From NCBI RefSeq assembly GCF_033344935.1, contig NZ_JAWPMM010000001.1:620001-684000 (forward strand): DNA of 64,000 bases, in the 5' to 3' direction. This stretch comes from Reichenbachiella sp. Lineage in GTDB: Bacteria > Bacteroidota > Bacteroidia > Cytophagales > Cyclobacteriaceae. A model generated the notes under the pieces. That model made no database searches. It was given only the letters and a program-made list of their open reading frames with translations, and was not told the origin of the DNA. Within the stretch, counting starts at the first letter, position 1. The number at the start of each line of letters is the position of its first letter. This document shows, in pieces, positions 5,375-47,377 of this stretch. The position numbers and the translations under genes were made by a program.

Positions 5375-6247
5375 ATGCAAAGAAGGTCTCATATCCAGTT
5401 GCTCGTAGATGCCCTAAGACTGAGTCGTTTCAATAATCTTGTTATCATTTTTATCACCCAATATGCGGGAGCGATATTCTTGTTGAATTCAGATCAGCCC
5501 GTTTGGTTTGTTGTTGGAGACTTCAGGTTTTTTGTATTGGTACTAAGCACAGTTATTATAGCGGCGGCGGGTTACTACATTAATGACTACTACGATATAA
5601 AAATTGACCTAATCAACAAGCCAGATCGTGTAATTGTAGGAAATACGATTAAGCGAAGACCAGTTATGATCGCTCATACCTCCTTGAATGCTTTGGGCAT
5701 TCTTTTGGGAGCTGTAGTTTCCTTGTGGATTGGTGTCATAAACTTGGTTTGTGCCTTTTTACTTTGGTGGTATTCCAATCAGCTGAAACGGCTTCCCTTC
5801 ATTGGAAATTTTGTGGTCGCGCTCCTGACCGGCTCCACGCTGTTGGTACTTTTGGTGTATTATCAATCCTTGGATTTACTCACCATGGTTTATGCGCTAT
5901 TCGCATTTGGCATTACTTTGATTCGTGAAATCATTAAGGACATTGAAGATATGGAGGGCGACGCTAATTACGATGGATTGACTTTGCCAGTTGTCTTTGG
6001 TTTGAGGAAAACTAAAATTATTCTATTCTGCATCATCGCTCCTTTTTTTTCTAGTCTGGTGGTGTTTTTGCTTCAGGTACGAAACCAATATCTTCTATAT
6101 TATTTTGGTGTACTTACGATTCCATTTATATACTTTTTATACAAGCTGGTTTTAGCTGACACCAAAAAACATTTTTCGTATCTGAGCAGCTACTGCAAAT
6201 GGCTTATTATTGCAGGCATTTTGAGTATGGCCATTCTAAAATTTTGA
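5375..6247 (+). CDS. UbiA-family prenyltransferase (geranylgeranylglycerol-phosphate geranylgeranyltransferase-like)
   Basis: 290 residues, strongly hydrophobic, with about eight or nine membrane helices. It carries both Asp-rich motifs of the UbiA superfamily: NDYYDIKIDLINKPDR (about residue 70) and DIEDMEGD (about residue 190), which bind the Mg-diphosphate of the prenyl donor. Bacteroidota proteins of this length and motif set are usually annotated as geranylgeranylglycerol-phosphate geranylgeranyltransferase, but the true acceptor is not settled by sequence. The gene follows an unknown membrane protein and precedes purN by 7 bases; the pairing with purN looks like operon convenience rather than pathway. 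Confidence 0.82.
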   Translation: MQRRSHIQLLVDALRLSRFNNLVIIFITQYAGAIFLLNSDQPVWFVVGDFRFFVLVLSTVIIAAAGYYINDYYDIKIDLINKPDRVIVGNTIKRRPVMIAHTSLNALGILLGAVVSLWIGVINLVCAFLLWWYSNQLKRLPFIGNFVVALLTGSTLLVLLVYYQSLDLLTMVYALFAFGITLIREIIKDIEDMEGDANYDGLTLPVVFGLRKTKIILFCIIAPFFSSLVVFLLQVRNQYLLYYFGVLTIPFIYFLYKLVLADTKKHFSYLSSYCKWLIIAGILSMAILKF

Positions 6248-39764: not shown

Positions 39765-40346
39765 ATGAATTACGATATAACTCAAATATCCGATCTGATT
39801 AAGAATCGTAGATCCATCTTCCCGAAAAACTATTCTGGAGAAAGGGTGTCTGATGAGGTGATTGCAGAGATGCTCGAAAATGCCAATTGGGCCCCGACCC
39901 ACAAGATGACTGAGCCGTGGAGATTCACTGTTTTCTGCGATGAGGGTATTGAGGCTTTCGCCAATTTTCAGGCAGAGTTGTATCTGAAGTCTGCTGGCAA
40001 GAAGCCAGACAAGGACAAAATCAAAAAACTCAAGTCCAAGCCTTTGATGTGTTCACACATCATTTCTATAGGTATGAAAAGAAACAAATCCATTCCGAAA
40101 ATGGAAGAGATTGCTGCCGTGGCTGCGGCTGTACAAAACATGCACCTGACCGCCACTGCGCATGGCGTCGGCTGCTATTGGAGTACAGGTGGCGTGACCT
40201 ACGACAAGAATGCAAATTCTTTCTTTGATCTCGGGGAGAAAGATTTGTTGATGGGCTTTTTATACGTCGGCATGCCCAAAAAAGCTAAGTGGCCCAAGGG
40301 CAAAAGAAAGTCCATAGATAAGAAAGTAAAGTGGGTGAGGAAGTAA
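39765..40346 (+). CDS. Nitroreductase-family FMN enzyme
   Basis: 193 residues. It starts IKNRRSIFPKNYSGERVSDE, with NRRS binding the FMN phosphate, and has NWAPTHKMTEPWRFTVF, IAAVAAAVQNMHLTATAHGVGCYWSTG and LLMGFLYVGMP. This is the standard small nitroreductase fold, using NAD(P)H to reduce nitro groups or quinones; the natural substrate is unknown. It stands alone after a repeat and converges on the methyltransferase gene with no gap. Confidence 0.9.
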   Translation: MNYDITQISDLIKNRRSIFPKNYSGERVSDEVIAEMLENANWAPTHKMTEPWRFTVFCDEGIEAFANFQAELYLKSAGKKPDKDKIKKLKSKPLMCSHIISIGMKRNKSIPKMEEIAAVAAAVQNMHLTATAHGVGCYWSTGGVTYDKNANSFFDLGEKDLLMGFLYVGMPKKAKWPKGKRKSIDKKVKWVRK

Positions 40347-41054
40347 TCACTTACAAATAATCAACTCCCAACGATAGGCCCAGCGCCAGGTGAGGGAGTA
40401 GTCTTGGATCCCGGCCATTTTCAAATATTTTTCTAATTCTTCTCTGGTAAAGGATCGTTCAACGGACAACAAAGAATCGTATTTCACCATTTCTGACTTA
40501 GACCAATTGGTGATTAAGTACTTGGTGAATAGATAAGATACCCAATGACGATGTAGGTCGTTGATCACCAGGCCCACCCGCACCTGTCTCATCAATTGCT
40601 GGAGTAATTCTACGATTTCCTCAGCTTGCATGTGATGGAAAAATAGGCTGGCATGGGCAATGTCAAACTCACGAGCTTTGAACTCTTCCCTCAGAATATT
40701 TTCTGCGCTGAATGAAATGTTAGGGTATTTGCTGCAGTTTTTTTGTGCGTAGTCTACAATGTATTTATTCGCATCTATGCCGACCAGCTGAAGGTCTTGG
40801 TTGTGTTTCTTGCCCCATTTAGCGAATAGCTTTAGTGTATCTCCACCCCCACATCCTAAATCAACTATTTTATAATTCTCTTGAGGTTTTTTTAGGATTA
40901 GTTTTTTCACCCCATTTAGCGAAAGCAGATCTCCACCTAAGTAAGTATTGATTTGATTGAGTTCTCGTAGCGTTTGATTGACTACCTCTCCTTGGCAGAA
41001 AAAATCATCCATGATTTCTTCTTTGAGTGAGCGCTGTTTGAGAAAGTCGAACAT
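40347..41054 (-). CDS. Class I SAM-dependent methyltransferase, polyketide-cluster member
   Basis: 235 residues from the ATG at 41054; longer readings run into the polyketide gene. Motif I KIVDLGCGGGDTLKLF (about residue 70) binds SAM, then LVGIDANKYIV and EFDIAHASLFFHHM. It resembles small-molecule O- or C-methyltransferases acting on phenolics or quinones. The gene starts 4 bases after the type III PKS stop, so the two are co-transcribed and it probably methylates the PKS product. Confidence 0.85.
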   Translation of the reverse strand: MFDFLKQRSLKEEIMDDFFCQGEVVNQTLRELNQINTYLGGDLLSLNGVKKLILKKPQENYKIVDLGCGGGDTLKLFAKWGKKHNQDLQLVGIDANKYIVDYAQKNCSKYPNISFSAENILREEFKAREFDIAHASLFFHHMQAEEIVELLQQLMRQVRVGLVINDLHRHWVSYLFTKYLITNWSKSEMVKYDSLLSVERSFTREELEKYLKMAGIQDYSLTWRWAYRWELIICK

Positions 41055-41058
41055 GGTC

Positions 41059-42156
41059 TTAAACGGTTTTGAACAATAGACTTTCAAGGGTGAGGCCTGG
41101 CCCGAATGCAAAGGAGAGAATTTTTTTATTAGGCTGGGATTTTAGTGGCGACCAAACTTGATTGAGTACAAATAGAACAGTTGGTGAAGACATATTACCA
41201 TGATTTTTCAAAATTTCATAAGCCTGATGGTTCTGTGTTTTAGTAATTCCCAATTGGTTTTCTATGGCTTCTAGTATTTTCTTGCCGCCAGGGTGAATAG
41301 CATATGCATCTATGTCAGTCAGCGCTAAATTGTTCTTAGCTAACAAATCAGAGGTAAGCTTTTGGATTCCACCCTCGATAATTTTTGGCACGTAGGAGGT
41401 CAACGCCATTTCAAAACCAAAGTCTCCAATTTGCCATGCCATATCATTTTGGCCGCTTATAAAAAGTTGACTGGCTGAATGCATAACTTCAAGTGCTGGT
41501 TTATTTTTTTGAAGTTGACCTGAAACAACCACAGCAGCCGCACCATCCGCGAATAGTGAGTGAGCGAGAAGATTGTCCTCAGTTTGTTCTTTTTGGAGAT
41601 GTAAACTGCAAAGCTCAACACTTACGATCAAAACCTTGGCTTCTGGGCTATTGTCACAAATTTCTTTGGATAGATTAATCGCATTCATGGCTGCATAGCA
41701 ACCCATAAAGTTGAGGCTATTTCTTCTAATGTCTGAGGCTAGATTGAGTGCTTTGATTAGATCAACATCTAAGCCTGGTGCGTACATACCGGTGCAGCTT
41801 ACAGTAATTAAGTGAGTAAATTCTGACAATTGATGATTGTTGTCCAAACAGTCCGTGATGGCCGAAATAGCCAGTGGCAGCGCTTCTTGTCGGTAGATAT
41901 TCATGCGTTTCTGCGTGCTTGGGAATGGACTTAGATTTTCCTCATTAGAATAGAAGGTGAATGTACCTGGTTGTTTTTTGTAATCATCTAGTACAGAATA
42001 CCGGTGTTTAATACCAGTAGCCCGGTATAAGACTTTAACTTTTTTATGTTGGTTAGCGTCTTCAGTCAAATGGTCGCACATAAACTGTGCGAGATCCTCT
42101 TGAGAGTAACGATTGGCCGGATTGGCTGTTCCTATAGCTGTGATGTAAGCGCCCAT
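41059..42156 (-). CDS. Type III polyketide synthase (chalcone synthase fold)
   Basis: 365 residues. The thiolase-fold triad is complete: Cys153 in FMGCYAAMNAI, His288 in AIHPGGKKILEAI and Asn321 in NHGNMSSPTVLFVL. Type III PKSs extend an acyl starter with malonyl-CoA and cyclise to alkylresorcinols, alkylpyrones or phloroglucinols; which one is not visible. CTGMYAPGLDVDLI occupies the position of a loop near the tunnel. The gene pairs with a methyltransferase downstream and a UbiA prenyltransferase on the opposite strand, a likely small biosynthetic locus. Confidence 0.9.
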   Translation of the reverse strand: MGAYITAIGTANPANRYSQEDLAQFMCDHLTEDANQHKKVKVLYRATGIKHRYSVLDDYKKQPGTFTFYSNEENLSPFPSTQKRMNIYRQEALPLAISAITDCLDNNHQLSEFTHLITVSCTGMYAPGLDVDLIKALNLASDIRRNSLNFMGCYAAMNAINLSKEICDNSPEAKVLIVSVELCSLHLQKEQTEDNLLAHSLFADGAAAVVVSGQLQKNKPALEVMHSASQLFISGQNDMAWQIGDFGFEMALTSYVPKIIEGGIQKLTSDLLAKNNLALTDIDAYAIHPGGKKILEAIENQLGITKTQNHQAYEILKNHGNMSSPTVLFVLNQVWSPLKSQPNKKILSFAFGPGLTLESLLFKTV

Positions 42157-42266
42157 TTTCTAAAGTGGAAAATAGCGAAAATTTGGGATTCGAACGAATG
42201 ATTAAAATGGTAGAATCGGAAACGGATTAGACAAGCATTTAATAAATTGTTGCGAAAAGGCATACA

Positions 42267-43127
42267 ATGACCAAATCCACATTTTTACACCTTCGTTTTC
42301 CATTTTCTTTTTTTCTGTTACCTGTTTTCGTTTTCGGAGTAGCAATAGCTCAGCCGGAGGATTGGACCCGAATAGCGTTGGTGTTTTTTATTCTTCATTT
42401 TCTGCTATATCCTGCGAGTAATGGATACAATTCCTACTTCGATCAAGATGAGGGAAGTATTGGTGGATTGGAGCACCCACCGGAAGCAACGAAGAACTTA
42501 TATGGTTGGTCGCTGATTTTGGATTTGCTGGCGCTAGGACTTGGACTATTAATTGATTGGAGGTTTAGTGGTTTGCTTTTAATCTATGGGCTGGTATCCA
42601 AAGCTTATAGTCATCCTTTAATTAGACTCAAGAAGCGACCAATTCTGGGATGGCTGGCAGTAGGTGTTTTTCAGGGTTATTTTACATTTCTCATGACGGT
42701 TTTCGGAGTTTCTACTTATCACATTGATCTATTTGATTGGCAATGGCAACTTCCTGCGCTGTTGAGTTCGATGTTACTTCTGGGTAGTTATCCTATGACG
42801 CAGATCTATCAGCACAAGGAGGATGAAGAACGAGGAGACATTACCATAAGTTTGAAGCTCGGCATCTTAGGAACCTTCTATTTTACAGGCGCATTCTTTT
42901 TTATTTCAACTTTAGGATTTATTTACTATTTCACGGAAACCCATTCGCCCCAGACTGGTCTTTTGTTTATCATTCTTATGCTTCCAGTAGTAGGTTATTT
43001 CTTTTATTGGTTTTTAATAGTGCGAAAAGATGCCAACAAAGCAGATTTTAGACATACCATGCGATTAAACTTGGTGTCTGCTTTGATGTTGAATCTGTTT
43101 TTCTTGATTTTTGCCTTGAATCTTTAA
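42267..43127 (+). CDS. UbiA-family prenyltransferase, second copy
   Basis: 286 residues with about eight or nine membrane helices. The first Asp motif is NSYFDQDEGSIGGLEHPP and the second HKEDEERGDITISLKLG. It is distinct from the copy at 5375 and its motifs are less canonical (a NxxxDxD-like first box). It is divergent from the type III PKS, with 110 bases between, and 8 bases before the ECF sigma gene. The likely acceptor is the aromatic or phenolic product of the PKS, giving a prenylated polyketide (inference from position). Confidence 0.82.
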   Translation: MTKSTFLHLRFPFSFFLLPVFVFGVAIAQPEDWTRIALVFFILHFLLYPASNGYNSYFDQDEGSIGGLEHPPEATKNLYGWSLILDLLALGLGLLIDWRFSGLLLIYGLVSKAYSHPLIRLKKRPILGWLAVGVFQGYFTFLMTVFGVSTYHIDLFDWQWQLPALLSSMLLLGSYPMTQIYQHKEDEERGDITISLKLGILGTFYFTGAFFFISTLGFIYYFTETHSPQTGLLFIILMLPVVGYFFYWFLIVRKDANKADFRHTMRLNLVSALMLNLFFLIFALNL

Positions 43128-43135
43128 AAGACTCA

Positions 43136-43717
43136 ATGCCTACCATACCCATTCAAAACAATCTGGACCAAAACTTCAAAGACTTATATTTTGAGTTTTA
43201 TGAAGCTGCCCTGCGTACGGCTATGTATGTGCTGAAACGACAGGATGCAGCGGAAGACGTCGTTCAGAATGTTTTTCTCAAACTTTGGGACAAACGAGGG
43301 CAATTGGACCAACTCAACAATCCAAAAGCTTACATCATGCAGATGGCCAGGAATGGAGCCCTGGATGTAGTCAAAAAAGGAGATTACTTGGGAGAAGAAT
43401 TTATCCCGTTAGAGTTTGAGGAAGATTTAGCCGATACCAATATTGAGCACGATGATATGCGTAAAGCCATTGAGCAGGCTGTTGGACAATTGAGCCCTAA
43501 GTGCAGATTGGTTTTTTCCCTGAGTCGATTTGAAGGATTAACCAATCCAGAGATAGCGGAGCATTTGGATGTTTCTATCCGAACCGTAGAAACACAAATT
43601 TCTAATGCGCTCAAAAGTTTTAGGACAGACTTACGCCATTACTTTATAGAGTTTTTAGGCTGGGGCCTTCTTGTTGGAAGTCAATGGATTGATAAAGGGT
43701 CAGAATTATTTTTGTAA
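43136..43717 (+). CDS. ECF RNA polymerase sigma factor (Bacteroidota FecI-like)
   Basis: 193 residues. Region 2 (FYEAALRTAMYVLKRQDAAEDVVQNVFLKLWDKRG) and region 4 (LSPKCRLVFSLSRFEGLTNPEIAEHLDVSIRTVETQI) are both intact. It is followed by a FecR-type anti-sigma gene 58 bases away and a TonB-dependent receptor, so it likely activates that receptor in response to an outer-membrane signal. The C-terminal tail has a hydrophobic stretch (FIEFLGWGLLVGSQWI). Confidence 0.93.
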   Translation: MPTIPIQNNLDQNFKDLYFEFYEAALRTAMYVLKRQDAAEDVVQNVFLKLWDKRGQLDQLNNPKAYIMQMARNGALDVVKKGDYLGEEFIPLEFEEDLADTNIEHDDMRKAIEQAVGQLSPKCRLVFSLSRFEGLTNPEIAEHLDVSIRTVETQISNALKSFRTDLRHYFIEFLGWGLLVGSQWIDKGSELFL

Positions 43718-43775
43718 TGTTTTACGTGTTTTAACAATTGGTTCGTCTTAGTATCGAGTCCCAAAGGTTAAAAAC

Positions 43776-44756
43776 ATGAATGATCAGAAATTTTTCGACC
43801 GCTGTGCCCAGAAACTATCTGGAGCCTTTACATCTGAAGAAGAATCGAAGTTTTACGATTACCTGGAGAACAATCCAGATCAAAAGAACGCTTTTCATGA
43901 TTTTGAAAAGCAATGGGAGACAAGTGGTAAGCTTAAGCTTAAATATGAAGCTGACCCGCAGCTAGCATGGGAGAAGTTTTCCGAACTTAAATCTGACGAC
44001 CAGCCTACCACCGTACGGTGGATTCATTTTGCCACCCGTCTGGCAGCTATGATTTTGCTGACTGTTGGTTTAGGGTTCTTAATTCGTGAATTCGGAAAAA
44101 ATGAACCCTATCACTACGCAACTTTTGAGGGCGAAACTAAATGGGTTGTATTACCAGATAGTAGTAGAATCAAATTGAATGAATCTACACTACTTACAGT
44201 TGCTTCTGATTTTAACATGGAAGAAAGGAATGTTTCTCTAAAGGGAGAAGCTTTTTTTGAAATTTCCAGAGATGAATCCAAACCGTTTATCATTCAGACC
44301 GAAGGAGCCAAAACACAGGTGTTGGGAACTTCTTTCAATATTCGAGCTATCGAAGAGGAGGATAATGTTGAAATATATGTGGTAAGCGGGAAAGTTTCTT
44401 TTTCAGCCAAAGATTCAGAACTCATTCTTACTCAAGGAATGGCGGCAAATTTTGATAAATCCAACGATCTACTGGCGCTTGAAGAAAATCAAGCCAATGC
44501 ATTGGCCTGGCACGTCAATTCTCTCGAATTCAAGGACGCTCCATTGGACAAGGTCTTTGCCGATCTCGAGAATTATTTTGACGTTGAAATAGTCATTGCC
44601 AATAACAAAATAAAAAACTGCCGCTTCACGGGCGAATTCAAAAAGCCGAAACTAAAAGAAATATTGAAGGTGATAGCCATTTCTATCGGTATTACTCACA
44701 CCGAAAACAATAATAGCTATACCATTCAAGGAGAGGGTTGCTCTCCACAACCATAG
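43776..44756 (+). CDS. FecR-family anti-sigma factor
   Basis: 326 residues. A cytoplasmic N-terminal region binds sigma, a helix at about residues 89-108 (LAAMILLTVGLGFLIREFG) crosses the inner membrane, and the periplasmic FecR domain follows (YATFEGETKWVVLPDSSRIKLNESTLL). The C-terminal DUF4974-like segment has LEFKDAPLDKVFADLENYFDVEI. Its signal receptor is the TonB protein encoded next. The end overlaps the next reading frame, but the real receptor start is 29 bases after the stop. Confidence 0.92.
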   Translation: MNDQKFFDRCAQKLSGAFTSEEESKFYDYLENNPDQKNAFHDFEKQWETSGKLKLKYEADPQLAWEKFSELKSDDQPTTVRWIHFATRLAAMILLTVGLGFLIREFGKNEPYHYATFEGETKWVVLPDSSRIKLNESTLLTVASDFNMEERNVSLKGEAFFEISRDESKPFIIQTEGAKTQVLGTSFNIRAIEEEDNVEIYVVSGKVSFSAKDSELILTQGMAANFDKSNDLLALEENQANALAWHVNSLEFKDAPLDKVFADLENYFDVEIVIANNKIKNCRFTGEFKKPKLKEILKVIAISIGITHTENNNSYTIQGEGCSPQP

Positions 44757-44785
44757 TCAAATACTCAAAACAATATCTTAAACCA

Positions 44786-47377
44786 ATGAACAAATATTAT
44801 TATTTGGCCTTGCTATGCCTGTTTTCTACAGGAAGTGTGCTGGCACAGGAAAAAACTGATTTAAAGATTAATACCTATTTTCATGAACTTCCGCTAGAAA
44901 AGGTTCTAACCTATTTGGAAGAGCAATCAGATTACACCTTCTCCTATAGCTCTAGTGCTATACCCTTAGATGAAAAAGTAACACTTAAAGAACAAGATAT
45001 TTCCTTCTGGTATGCACTAGATGAATCGTTAAAATATTTGCCTGTTTCTTACGAAGTGGTAAATCAAAATATTGTACTAAAGTATAATGAATTGACTCAA
45101 ACGATTCGGGGTACTATTCTAGACAAGGACACAAAACAGCCCATTTTTGGCGCAACCGTAATGGTTGTTGGCTCGGATCCTTTGATAGGAGCCACAACGG
45201 ATATGAATGGCAATTATCGATTGACCAATGTGCCTGTTGGCCGATTGACGCTACACTATGGCTATTTGGGTTATGAAGAAGGCGCAATTCCCAATGTACT
45301 ATTAGGTTCTGGTAAGGAGCTGATATTGGATGTGGAGTTGGTCGAATCTGTGATAAAGATGGAAGAAATCGTGGTGAGTGCCACTGGCATTGGGTCACAG
45401 CCGCTCAACGAAATGGGTATGATCAGTGGGAGATCATTTACTGTTGAGGAAACCAAAAGATACCCCATAAGTATTGGTGATCCCATGAGACTGGCTTCTT
45501 CTTTTGCTGGCGTCATGGGAACTGACGACGACTCTAATGAAATTGTGATTCGAGGGAATAGTCCTCGAGGTATACTTTGGAAAATGGAAGGTGTTGAAAT
45601 TCCCAATCCCAATCACTTTTCCAGCGAAGGGGCTTCTTCTGGAGGGATCAGTATGTTTAGCACACAGGTTATTTCTAGATCAGACTTTTATACTGGTGCG
45701 TTTGCGCCGATTTATGGAAATGTGCTTTCTGGTGTATTTGATATCAATTTGAGAAAAGGAAATAATGAAAAGCATGAGCATACAGTTCAGGCCGGATTGT
45801 TAGGAATAGACCTTTCTTCAGAAGGACCAATTAGTAAATCTTCGGGTAGCTCTTATTTGTTCAATTATCGATATTCTACCCTATCTATTCTGAGTGACCT
45901 TGGTGTTGTAGAAATAGATGAGAATGAAAAGAATACCTTTCAGGATTTAGCTTTCAAAGTAAATTTTCCAACTGAGAACATGGGGACCTTCTCTGTTTTT
46001 GGCATGGGCGGACTAAGCAAATATTCGAGGACCGGCGAGGGGTTTCGAGAAGATATTGAAAAATACAATATGGGTGTAATTGGTGTATCTAATGATCTGA
46101 TCCTCAATAGTAGTACATTTTTAAAGACTAATGTATCTGTCTCAGGGACTGAGGTTGGGAATGATGAGTTCGTGAAATATCAACAAGACACCATTAATGT
46201 GGATTATAATAATCTTGAATCATTCAAGAAAAGCTATACCAGGGGGTCAGTCATCTTGAACAAAAAGTTTAATTCCCGGCATATTTTAGAATTAGGAACT
46301 GTTATTAGTTGGTTGGATTATGATTTTGTAGAGCGGGAGCATAACATTAATAATGCAGATCCTTTTGTTGATCTGGTTTTGTTTAATGATGAAGGCGCTT
46401 CAGGTACTCAACAAGCTTTTGTGTCATGGAAGTTTAGAATTACCGAGAAGCTGAGTCTGGTTAATGGCTTACACTATTTCAGGTTTAGTTTTACAGGAGA
46501 GGATTCGTGGGAGCCTCGCTCAAGTCTCAAGTGGCAATTCAGAGAGAATCAATCTATCACTGCCGGTTTTGGTATGCATAGTAGATTGGAGTCTTTGGAG
46601 TATTACCTCGGAAATCATATCAACAGCGATGGCACTACCGTTGACAACAATCCTAATCTGGGCATGTCCAAAGCCAATCATTTCGTTTTGGGCTATGATC
46701 GGGTGTTAGGGCCAAGTTTATACTTTAAAACTGAAGTGTACTATCAACATCTCTATAATATTCCTATTTCTAACAACCCTGCTTTTGGTTGGTATTCGTC
46801 GATCAATTCTTCGGATGACTATTCAACAATCCCACTTGTAAATGAGGGCACTGGAGAAAACTACGGAATAGAAATGACGCTGGATAAACGATTTTCTAGA
46901 AACTACTATTTTATGGTCAATGGTTCCATTTTCGAATCCAAATACAAAGGCGGAGATGAAATTGAGAGAAACTCCAGATTCAATGGCAATTTCACTTATC
47001 ATGGTTTGGGAGGTAAGGAATGGAAGGTTGGTAAGAACGGGAAAAACAATATCCTTGGTGTAAGCGCTAAAATTTCTTATGCTGGAAATAAGCGGCTAAT
47101 TCCTATTGATTTAGAAGAATCAATAGATCAAGGCCGACAAGTGAATGATTTTGATCGTGCTTTTGAAGAACGAGCGCCCGATTATTTTAGGTTTGATTTG
47201 CAAATTAGCTATCGAAAAAACAGAGCTAAATCTACTTCCGAATGGCGACTGGATCTACAAAATGTAACAGGACGAATGAACTATGGAGAACAGTATTACA
47301 ATGATGGTTTGCAGCAGATTGTTCAGGAGGATCAGATTGGATTAATACCCGTACTCAGTTACCGAATTGAATTTTAG
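44786..47377 (+). CDS. TonB-dependent receptor with secretin/TonB N-terminal signalling domain
   Basis: 863 residues from the ATG at 44786, whose signal peptide (YYYLALLCLFSTGSVLAQ) is typical; longer readings overlap FecR. The N-terminal STN-like domain (about 22-90, FHELPLEKVLTYLEEQSDYTFSYSS) would touch FecR. A carboxypeptidase-regulatory-like domain (about 95-180, IRGTILDKDTKQPIFGATV), plug (EIVIRGNSPRGILWKMEGVEIPNPNHFSSEG) and a barrel follow, ending VLSYRIEF. The ligand is unknown; no SusD partner gene follows, so it is not a standard glycan SusC/D pair. Confidence 0.9.
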   Translation: MNKYYYLALLCLFSTGSVLAQEKTDLKINTYFHELPLEKVLTYLEEQSDYTFSYSSSAIPLDEKVTLKEQDISFWYALDESLKYLPVSYEVVNQNIVLKYNELTQTIRGTILDKDTKQPIFGATVMVVGSDPLIGATTDMNGNYRLTNVPVGRLTLHYGYLGYEEGAIPNVLLGSGKELILDVELVESVIKMEEIVVSATGIGSQPLNEMGMISGRSFTVEETKRYPISIGDPMRLASSFAGVMGTDDDSNEIVIRGNSPRGILWKMEGVEIPNPNHFSSEGASSGGISMFSTQVISRSDFYTGAFAPIYGNVLSGVFDINLRKGNNEKHEHTVQAGLLGIDLSSEGPISKSSGSSYLFNYRYSTLSILSDLGVVEIDENEKNTFQDLAFKVNFPTENMGTFSVFGMGGLSKYSRTGEGFREDIEKYNMGVIGVSNDLILNSSTFLKTNVSVSGTEVGNDEFVKYQQDTINVDYNNLESFKKSYTRGSVILNKKFNSRHILELGTVISWLDYDFVEREHNINNADPFVDLVLFNDEGASGTQQAFVSWKFRITEKLSLVNGLHYFRFSFTGEDSWEPRSSLKWQFRENQSITAGFGMHSRLESLEYYLGNHINSDGTTVDNNPNLGMSKANHFVLGYDRVLGPSLYFKTEVYYQHLYNIPISNNPAFGWYSSINSSDDYSTIPLVNEGTGENYGIEMTLDKRFSRNYYFMVNGSIFESKYKGGDEIERNSRFNGNFTYHGLGGKEWKVGKNGKNNILGVSAKISYAGNKRLIPIDLEESIDQGRQVNDFDRAFEERAPDYFRFDLQISYRKNRAKSTSEWRLDLQNVTGRMNYGEQYYNDGLQQIVQEDQIGLIPVLSYRIEF

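What the first reader, a model, noticed from the sequence alone, without database searches (positions are those of the whole stretch)
40347..43127. Small biosynthetic locus: type III polyketide synthase, methyltransferase and UbiA prenyltransferase
The PKS has its full Cys-His-Asn triad, is co-transcribed with a small-molecule methyltransferase (4-base gap) and is divergent from a membrane prenyltransferase. Together they could make a prenylated, methylated aromatic (a meroterpenoid or quinone-like lipid). This is the best candidate in the window for an undescribed product. Each enzyme class is known; the combination and the product are inference.
Basis: partly seen in the sequence, partly recalled or inferred. 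Interest (0 to 1): 0.6.

Follow-up and report, generated by a model that had tools for sequence, protein, structure and literature searches.

The report
Conserved Bacteroidota phenolic-lipid gene set
Three neighbouring genes in this bacterium, plus a fourth one elsewhere in its genome, form a widely shared but uncharacterised pathway that probably makes a decorated fatty phenol for the cell membrane; its membrane prenyltransferase-like protein has an unusual active site.

Summary
Confirmed and extended. Window 40347-43127 holds a type III polyketide synthase (PKS) with an intact Cys-His-Asn triad, a methyltransferase (MT) 4 bases behind it, and a divergent UbiA-family gene 110 bases away. A fourth gene was missed: a FAD oxidoreductase that flanks UbiA in many relatives lies about 245 kb away here. 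Outside the order the four often form one operon. The enzyme classes match the Actinoplanes agq cluster as recalled, so the combination is not new in kind. Best reading: an alkylresorcinol-type lipid, methylated, hydroxylated and prenylated. Unusual: UbiA has a confident UbiA fold but lacks the first Asp of both Asp-rich motifs (Ser56, Gln182; 132 of 132), so prenyl transfer is unproven. The wide distribution suggests a lineage lipid rather than a sporadic natural product. Nine open-access literature searches found no product. New variant of a known kind.

The parts
41059..42156 (-). Type III polyketide synthase, 365 aa, triad C153-H288-N321
   Evidence: PF00195/PF02797; nearest solved sequences are Steely1, a Mycobacterium marinum enzyme and PKS18; model pLDDT 95.6, best fold matches 4b0n Z 50.4 (rmsd 1.9 over 360) and PKS11 4jat Z 49.0 (rmsd 1.6 over 346); only match in the genome at E <= 0.001
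40347..41054 (-). SAM methyltransferase, likely ATG start at 41054 (235 aa), 4 bases behind the PKS stop
   Evidence: PF13649/PF13847, nearest NCBIfam PRK06202 129.8 bits, under its cut-off of 243; start by alignment and sequence
42267..43127 (+). UbiA-superfamily integral membrane protein, 286 aa, atypical motifs N55-S56-x-x-D59-x-D61 and Q182-H-x-x-D186
   Evidence: PF01040; model pLDDT 95.5, best fold match 4tq4 Z 23.0, rmsd 3.4 over 268; S56 and Q182 in 132 of 132
42157..42266 (.). 110-base divergent intergenic region between PKS and UbiA (presumed promoters; not analysed)
   Evidence: coordinates, sequence

Best explanation
A four-gene pathway for a decorated phenolic lipid, split in this genome. 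PKS loads a fatty acyl starter, extends it with malonyl-CoA and cyclises it to an alkylresorcinol-type phenol (inferred from class and nearest relatives). The distant FAD oxidoreductase (G000:C1:416070-417170, outside the window) hydroxylates the ring to a hydroquinone (inferred). The methyltransferase methylates it (inferred). The membrane UbiA protein attaches a prenyl group or otherwise finishes the lipid in the membrane (inferred; least certain step). Shown here: the gene set, its co-occurrence, its operon in other orders, the intact PKS triad, the UbiA fold (predicted) and the altered UbiA motifs. The product is probably a membrane or redox lipid of the lineage rather than a sporadic antibiotic (inferred).
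For: Co-occurrence in 291 genomes of the order: PKS 224; with UbiA 218, with oxidoreductase 210, with MT 192; all four 183, none of the four 62. In 198 genomes of the class (7 of the 37 below belong to the order): this PKS type in 37, UbiA in 37 of 37, MT in 37 of 37, oxidoreductase in 34 of 37; at the cut-offs used, MT (45) and oxidoreductase (42) occur only in genomes with a PKS of one of two types. Of the 30 such genomes outside the order, UbiA lies next to PKS in 27, within 1.9 kb in 2, on another contig in 1 (coordinates, read by eye). Of 20 loci fetched from these 30, 11 have UbiA>PKS>MT>oxidoreductase on one strand, one of them with a cut oxidoreductase. Named loci: 61 of 75 with room have the divergent PKS; MT directly behind it in 51 of 57; oxidoreductase behind UbiA in 44 of 55. 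Own-genome oxidoreductase: one match at E <= 0.001, 52% identity to a relative's. PKS is nearest to enzymes that take fatty or lipophilic starters (starter use partly recalled). Planctomycetal PKS genes from PKS/MT/oxidoreductase operons were shown by others to give alkylresorcinols (PMC10896814, abstract and passages).
Against: No chemistry was available. UbiA lacks the first Asp of both motifs, so ordinary Mg-diphosphate catalysis is not assured. In the order, 32 of 224 PKS genomes lack this MT type, 14 lack the oxidoreductase and 6 lack UbiA; 4 genomes have UbiA, 2 MT and 2 the oxidoreductase without this PKS, so the steps are not universal. In the 61 regions UbiA lies in the same region in only 30. 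14 of 75 named UbiA loci with room have no divergent PKS at hand. The oxidoreductase could act on the prenyl chain: its best NCBIfam match is the geranylgeranyl reductase family, though under the cut-off (123.2 against 158.8). Related genomes are not independent, so the Fisher values overstate significance.
Confidence: 0.6

Rival explanations
1. The UbiA protein is in the pathway but is not an ordinary prenyl-diphosphate transferase: it uses another donor, another metal scheme, or does a cyclisation or other membrane step.
For: Ser56 for the first Asp of motif I and Gln182 for the first Asp of motif II are invariant in 132 of 132 members, next to invariant N52, N55, D59, D61, R120, K122, Q136, Q179, D186, so the site is under selection but different; the genome's own MenA-like (L093) and L094 paralogues keep ND..D and an Asp-containing second motif.
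Against: The predicted fold is clearly UbiA, best to prenyl-diphosphate-bound structures (4tq4 Z 23.0, 4tq3 Z 22.4), and D59, D61, D186 remain; variant motifs exist in accepted members (the solved chlorophyll synthase aligns with Ser at the Q182 place, though with Asp at the Q179 place).
Confidence: 0.25
2. The PKS makes an alkylpyrone rather than an alkylresorcinol, and the other genes decorate that.
For: Several of the nearest structures are alkylpyrone synthases by title or recall (PKS11 Z 49.0; PKS18 Z 48.8).
Against: The PKS + methyltransferase + FAD oxidoreductase set is that of alkylresorcinol clusters (PMC10896814, PMC8086630 passages).
Confidence: 0.2
3. The oxidoreductase is a geranylgeranyl-reductase-type enzyme that saturates the prenyl chain, not a ring hydroxylase.
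For: Best NCBIfam match is GG-red-SF at 123.2 bits; the Actinoplanes product carries a dihydrogeranyl group (title cited in PMC10896814).
Against: The match is under the cut-off of 158.8; the same oxidoreductase family stands in 8 OX-MT-PKS operons whose genomes gave no match to this UbiA at E <= 1e-25, so it works without this UbiA; PF01494, the hydroxylase-type FAD domain, also matches.
Confidence: 0.2
4. UbiA is unrelated to the PKS product (for instance quinone or another lipid) and is only a neighbour.
For: UbiA without this PKS in 4 of 222 UbiA genomes of the order and in 5 of 42 in the class sample, with E-values of 2.0e-58 to 1.4e-30.
Against: 218 of 224 PKS genomes share it in the order; 37 of 37 against 0 of 9 by PKS type in the class; same-strand neighbours in 22 and divergent neighbours in 5 of 30 genomes outside the order; the genome has a separate MenA-like and a CtaB-like gene (names by motif, recalled).
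Confidence: 0.08
5. The locus makes flexirubin or its dialkylresorcinol part.
For: Flexirubins are known resorcinol lipids of Bacteroidota (PMC3072089 passage).
Against: The flexirubin dialkylresorcinol genes are darA/darB homologues (PMC3072089 passage); Marivirga strains carry type III PKS clusters but the three new strains made no flexirubin-type pigment (PMC11225308 passages), and Marivirga arenosa has this locus (L155).
Confidence: 0.02

Closest known systems
agq cluster of Actinoplanes missouriensis (alkyl-O-dihydrogeranyl-methoxyhydroquinones; Awakawa et al. 2011)
   Same: Enzyme classes as recalled: type III PKS, methyltransferase, flavoprotein hydroxylase, UbiA-type prenyltransferase; PMC10896814 says its alkylresorcinols are prenylated and hydroxylated.
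   Different: Another phylum; sequences not compared (paper not held; genome not reached); here the set is split and widespread, and the UbiA motifs are atypical.
hidABC (hierridins, cyanobacteria) and the planctomycetal alkylresorcinol operons
   Same: PKS + methyltransferase + FAD oxidoreductase (PMC10896814, PMC8086630 passages).
   Different: No UbiA named there, except one cyanobacterial cluster with a prenyltransferase (PMC8086630); gene order differs.
srs operon of Streptomyces griseus (alkylquinones)
   Same: PKS, methyltransferase and flavoprotein (recalled; alkylquinone product per PMC10896814).
   Different: No UbiA (recalled).
OX-MT-PKS operons of the same class found here (8 loci)
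   Same: Homologous oxidoreductase (37-46% to this genome's) and MT (31-39%).
   Different: PKS of another type (25-31% identity) and no match to this UbiA in those genomes.

Membership tests
Type III PKS (chalcone synthase superfamily) | Cys-His-Asn catalytic triad | tested here: met
   C153, H288, N321; 61 of 61
Type III PKS (chalcone synthase superfamily) | Chal_sti_synt N and C domains and fold | tested here: met
Type III PKS (chalcone synthase superfamily) | Iterative condensation of malonyl-CoA on a CoA/ACP starter | not testable with these tools
   needs enzyme assay
UbiA superfamily | PF01040 above cut-off and UbiA fold | tested here: met
   68.9 bits vs 34.2; Z 23.0, rmsd 3.4 over 268, to 4tq4
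Canonical UbiA prenyltransferase | Motif I NDxxDxxxD (motif recalled) | tested here: not met
   N55-S56-x-x-D59-x-D61-E62; S56 in 132 of 132
Canonical UbiA prenyltransferase | Motif II DxxxD (motif recalled) | tested here: not met
   Q182-H-x-x-D186; Q182 in 132 of 132; Asp there in the own MenA-like paralogue
Canonical UbiA prenyltransferase | Prenyl-diphosphate transfer activity | not testable with these tools
   needs enzyme assay
agq-type cluster | All four gene classes in the genome (classes recalled) | tested here: met
   window genome: three in the window, oxidoreductase at 416070-417170; all four in 183 of 291 genomes of the order
agq-type cluster | The four genes in one cluster | tested here: not met
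   in the window genome the oxidoreductase is about 245 kb away; met in many relatives
agq-type cluster | Orthology of the single genes to agqA-D | not tested
   agq sequences not reached; paper not held
agq-type cluster | O-prenylated methoxyhydroquinone lipid product | not testable with these tools
   needs lipid MS/NMR
Flexirubin cluster | DarA/DarB-type dialkylresorcinol enzymes as ring makers | tested here: not met
   ring maker here is chalcone-synthase type; darA/darB role from a PMC3072089 passage

The most novel reading that the evidence does not exclude
Cytophagales and many other Bacteroidota share a near-universal, undescribed phenolic or quinone-like membrane lipid, finished by a new subclass of UbiA enzyme whose Ser/Gln-substituted active site handles its donor differently from known prenyltransferases.
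Probability: 0.25. Interest if true: 0.75.

Novelty: new variant of a known kind. Interest (0 to 1): 0.55.

Why it matters
Three quarters of the sampled genomes of the order hold the PKS-UbiA pair (218 of 291) and 183 of 291 all four genes, yet nine answered searches of open-access papers showed no product for it. If it makes a membrane or redox lipid, it would be a new lineage marker and perhaps part of respiration or envelope protection. The UbiA subfamily offers a direct test of which Asp residues the fold really needs. Named strains carry the locus (Marivirga arenosa L155, Algoriphagus marincola L169, Belliella aquatica L175, Fulvivirga lutimaris L132), so one gene deletion with lipid MS would answer it.

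Tried and rejected
Flexirubin: rejected (different ring-making genes; Marivirga has type III PKS clusters, but its new strains made no flexirubin-type pigment). Halogenase role of the oxidoreductase: its best solved relatives by profile are FADH2-dependent halogenases; I made no test that decides this and did not pursue it. A methyltransferase replacing the MT in loci without it: the neighbouring cluster c27, looked at for this, has glycosyltransferase-like sequences by eye, so no replacement was found. Plasmid collection: no match to UbiA at E 0.01; PKS matches in 160 records, of which four were opened. Psychrobacter (PKS, FAD oxidoreductase, MT) and Deinococcus (PKS, MT, oxidoreductase) have no UbiA annotated in the stretch shown and none by tblastn at E 1e-3; Nonomuraea and Streptomyces had no gene table there, and one search found only the PKS. 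YceI (PF04264) and DM13 genes near UbiA in some loci outside the order: kept as a lead; the own genome has six YceI matches, the nearest about 14 kb from the oxidoreductase. Absence of other families from the fold lists proves nothing.

PKS tree (55 rows, a part of those held): a 100/99 branch parts 11 rows (ten PKSs of Bacteroidota genomes without this UbiA, plus Nonomuraea) from 44 (41 UbiA-partner PKSs plus Deinococcus, Streptomyces and Psychrobacter). The Psychrobacter PKS falls inside the UbiA-partner group, so that group is not one clean clade; the bootstrap had not settled, and long branches meet.

That the order is Cytophagales is inferred from equal contig lengths (for example G078:C1 and JAHBUD010000001.1, G229:C13 and JAEUUA010000023.1, G173:C87 and JANYHI010000061.1); the class name is recalled. 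The 60 order regions were picked by hand for spread from the matches listed; the 80 named loci are the best 80 of 581 and were found with UbiA, so their counts lean towards UbiA. Five of the 80 with under 1.5 kb upstream were left out of the 75. Weak PKS matches were set aside by E-value: 27 of 251 (9.7e-8 or weaker; the 224 kept are 9.9e-38 or stronger); the cut between the two PKS types is the gap between 2.6e-99 and 8.6e-69. Cut-offs for UbiA, oxidoreductase and MT were 1e-25, 1e-50 and 1e-25. Handle lists were copied by hand into; the set sizes agree with the tallies. Class adjacency counts were read by eye; two of the 27 adjacent UbiA genes there are broken or split (G387, G341).
Full report
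What is there. The window is G000:C1:620001-684000 of a 4.88-Mb single-contig genome. At 40347-43127 lie a type III PKS (41059-42156, -), a methyltransferase behind it and a divergent UbiA-family gene (42267-43127, +). The PKS triad Cys153-His288-Asn321 is intact and invariant in 61 of 61 aligned sequences. The methyltransferase most likely starts at the ATG at 41054, 4 bases after the PKS stop, as homologues begin there. The PKS gives one match in the genome; PF01040 has five matches, of which this UbiA is one.

Conserved synteny. In 60 regions of the order picked by hand, plus the window, MT lies in the same region in 36 of 61, UbiA in 30 and a fourth gene, a roughly 370-aa FAD oxidoreductase, in 28. 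A common layout is oxidoreductase> <UbiA PKS> MT>. In the 80 best named loci, found with a UbiA alignment, 61 of the 75 with room have the divergent PKS, MT is directly behind it in 51 of 57, and the oxidoreductase stands behind UbiA within 1.5 kb in 44 of 55. The window lacks the oxidoreductase; an ECF sigma/FecR/TonB-type set follows UbiA instead. The oxidoreductase is elsewhere in the same genome, one match, 52% identity, at 416070-417170, about 245 kb away.

Co-occurrence. Over 291 genomes of the order: PKS 224, UbiA 222, oxidoreductase 212, MT 194; PKS with UbiA 218 (6 PKS without, 4 UbiA without), with oxidoreductase 210 (14 and 2), with MT 192 (32 and 2); all four 183, none 62. Over 198 genomes of the class: this PKS type in 37, all 37 with UbiA; a second PKS type in 9, none with UbiA; UbiA in 5 others with E-values of 2.0e-58 to 1.4e-30; MT in 37 + 8, oxidoreductase in 34 + 8, and neither, at the cut-offs used, in any genome without a PKS. 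Of the 30 genomes of the first type outside the order, UbiA adjoins PKS in 27 (22 same strand, 5 divergent), lies within 1.9 kb in 2 and on another contig in 1. Of 20 such loci fetched, 11 read UbiA>PKS>MT>oxidoreductase on one strand (one with a cut oxidoreductase), 3 have UbiA divergent before PKS>MT>oxidoreductase, 1 has PKS>MT>oxidoreductase>UbiA, 1 has the layout of the order, and 4 lack one or two genes at the locus. The second PKS type stands in OX>MT>PKS order in 8 of the 9 genomes, with homologous oxidoreductase and MT; the ninth has the PKS alone. A tree parts the two PKS types by a 100/99 branch, with Deinococcus, Streptomyces and Psychrobacter PKSs on the UbiA-partner side, Psychrobacter inside that group, and Nonomuraea on the other side (cautions under Tried and rejected). 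So in these samples UbiA goes with one PKS type, which argues that it acts on that PKS's product. Genomes are related, so these counts are not independent events.

The UbiA protein. The model is confident (mean pLDDT 95.5), and its best fold matches are UbiA enzymes, two of them with bound prenyl diphosphates (4tq4 Z 23.0, rmsd 3.4 over 268; 4tq3 Z 22.4). The first row outside the UbiA group, if the membrane PRTase rows at Z 17.2 and 15.8 are counted in it (recalled), is a farnesyl diphosphate synthase at Z 14.2. Yet the Asp-rich motifs differ: N55-S56-x-x-D59-x-D61 and Q182-H-x-x-D186, with S56, Q182, Q179, D59, D61 and D186 in 132 of 132 members. The own MenA-like paralogue has NDYGD and DIESD at these places; the solved chlorophyll synthase has NDFYDRDID in motif I and aligns with Ser at the Q182 place and Asp at the Q179 place. 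It is therefore a member of the superfamily by profile and fold but fails the canonical motif test; whether it transfers a prenyl group must be tested.

The PKS and the oxidoreductase. Nearest solved sequences of the PKS are Steely1, a Mycobacterium marinum enzyme and PKS18; nearest folds are 4b0n (Z 50.4), PKS11 (49.0), M. marinum (49.0), PKS18 (48.8) and Steely1 (48.1). From recall, these take fatty or lipophilic starters. The oxidoreductase matches PF01494 and, below cut-off, the geranylgeranyl reductase family, and by profile solved halogenases, FixC and an archaeal reductase.

Mechanism. A fatty acyl starter plus malonyl units gives an alkylresorcinol-type phenol; hydroxylation, methylation and a UbiA-catalysed membrane step follow. 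Steps are inferred from class, neighbours and known cousins. Others showed by expression that planctomycetal PKSs, several from PKS/MT/oxidoreductase operons, make alkylresorcinols and that one added MT-oxidoreductase pair gives a single methylation (PMC10896814, abstract and passages). That paper also says the Actinoplanes AgqA alkylresorcinols are prenylated and hydroxylated; the agq paper itself was not held, so its gene list is recalled. The loseolamycin PKS has UbiA and methyltransferase genes nearby (PMC7587189, gene table passage). A hierridin-like cyanobacterial cluster with a prenyltransferase is noted in PMC8086630 (passages).

Against flexirubin: its genes are darA/darB homologues (PMC3072089 passage); Marivirga genomes have type III PKS clusters while the three new strains made no flexirubin-type pigment (PMC11225308 passages), and Marivirga arenosa has this locus (L155).

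Literature. Flavobacteriaceae surveys count type III PKS clusters without naming a product in the passages seen (PMC7440613, PMC10734526); Marivirga and Reichenbachiella papers list them (passages); PMC8146288 was seen in passages on the agq-like cluster of a Micromonospora. PMC9248904 gave no match for the terms tried. Nine answered searches of open-access text showed no product for this locus in their listings; subscription papers were not searchable.

Verdict. Real, conserved, functionally linked; not new in enzyme classes; new as a widespread Bacteroidota gene set with an atypical UbiA and, here, an unlinked fourth gene. Product unproven.

Noticed in passing
43136-47377: An ECF sigma factor, a FecR-type anti-sigma and a TonB-type outer membrane protein start 8 bases after UbiA on the same strand, where many relatives have the oxidoreductase; UbiA may be co-transcribed with them here.
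   Followed up: partly
39765-40346: A nitroreductase-family gene ends directly against the methyltransferase end. A homologue sits tail-to-tail close to the MT also in L052, L058, L066 and L134, L135: possibly a minor fifth partner.
   Followed up: partly
5465-6169: A second UbiA-family gene in the window (L094), with NDYYD and an Asp-containing second motif.
   Followed up: no
L096 (G000:C1:716434-717141): A weakly matching UbiA-like protein (36.9 bits) with atypical motifs elsewhere in the genome.
   Followed up: no
L177: A Psychrobacter plasmid PKS (43% identity) falls inside the UbiA-partner part of the tree, but its neighbouring oxidoreductase is only distantly similar (21%): possible horizontal transfer of the PKS.
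   Followed up: partly
L183, L184, L185, L186, L192, L194: A cluster whose tested member is a YceI-family protein (L183, L184, L185, L192, L194), and a cluster whose tested member has a DM13 electron-transfer domain (L185, L186), stand near UbiA outside the order.
   Followed up: partly
L103, L118, L156, L166: Records titled Anammoxibacter, Thalassovita and Thalassobius MAGs carry this Bacteroidota-type UbiA; probably mis-binned contigs.
   Followed up: no
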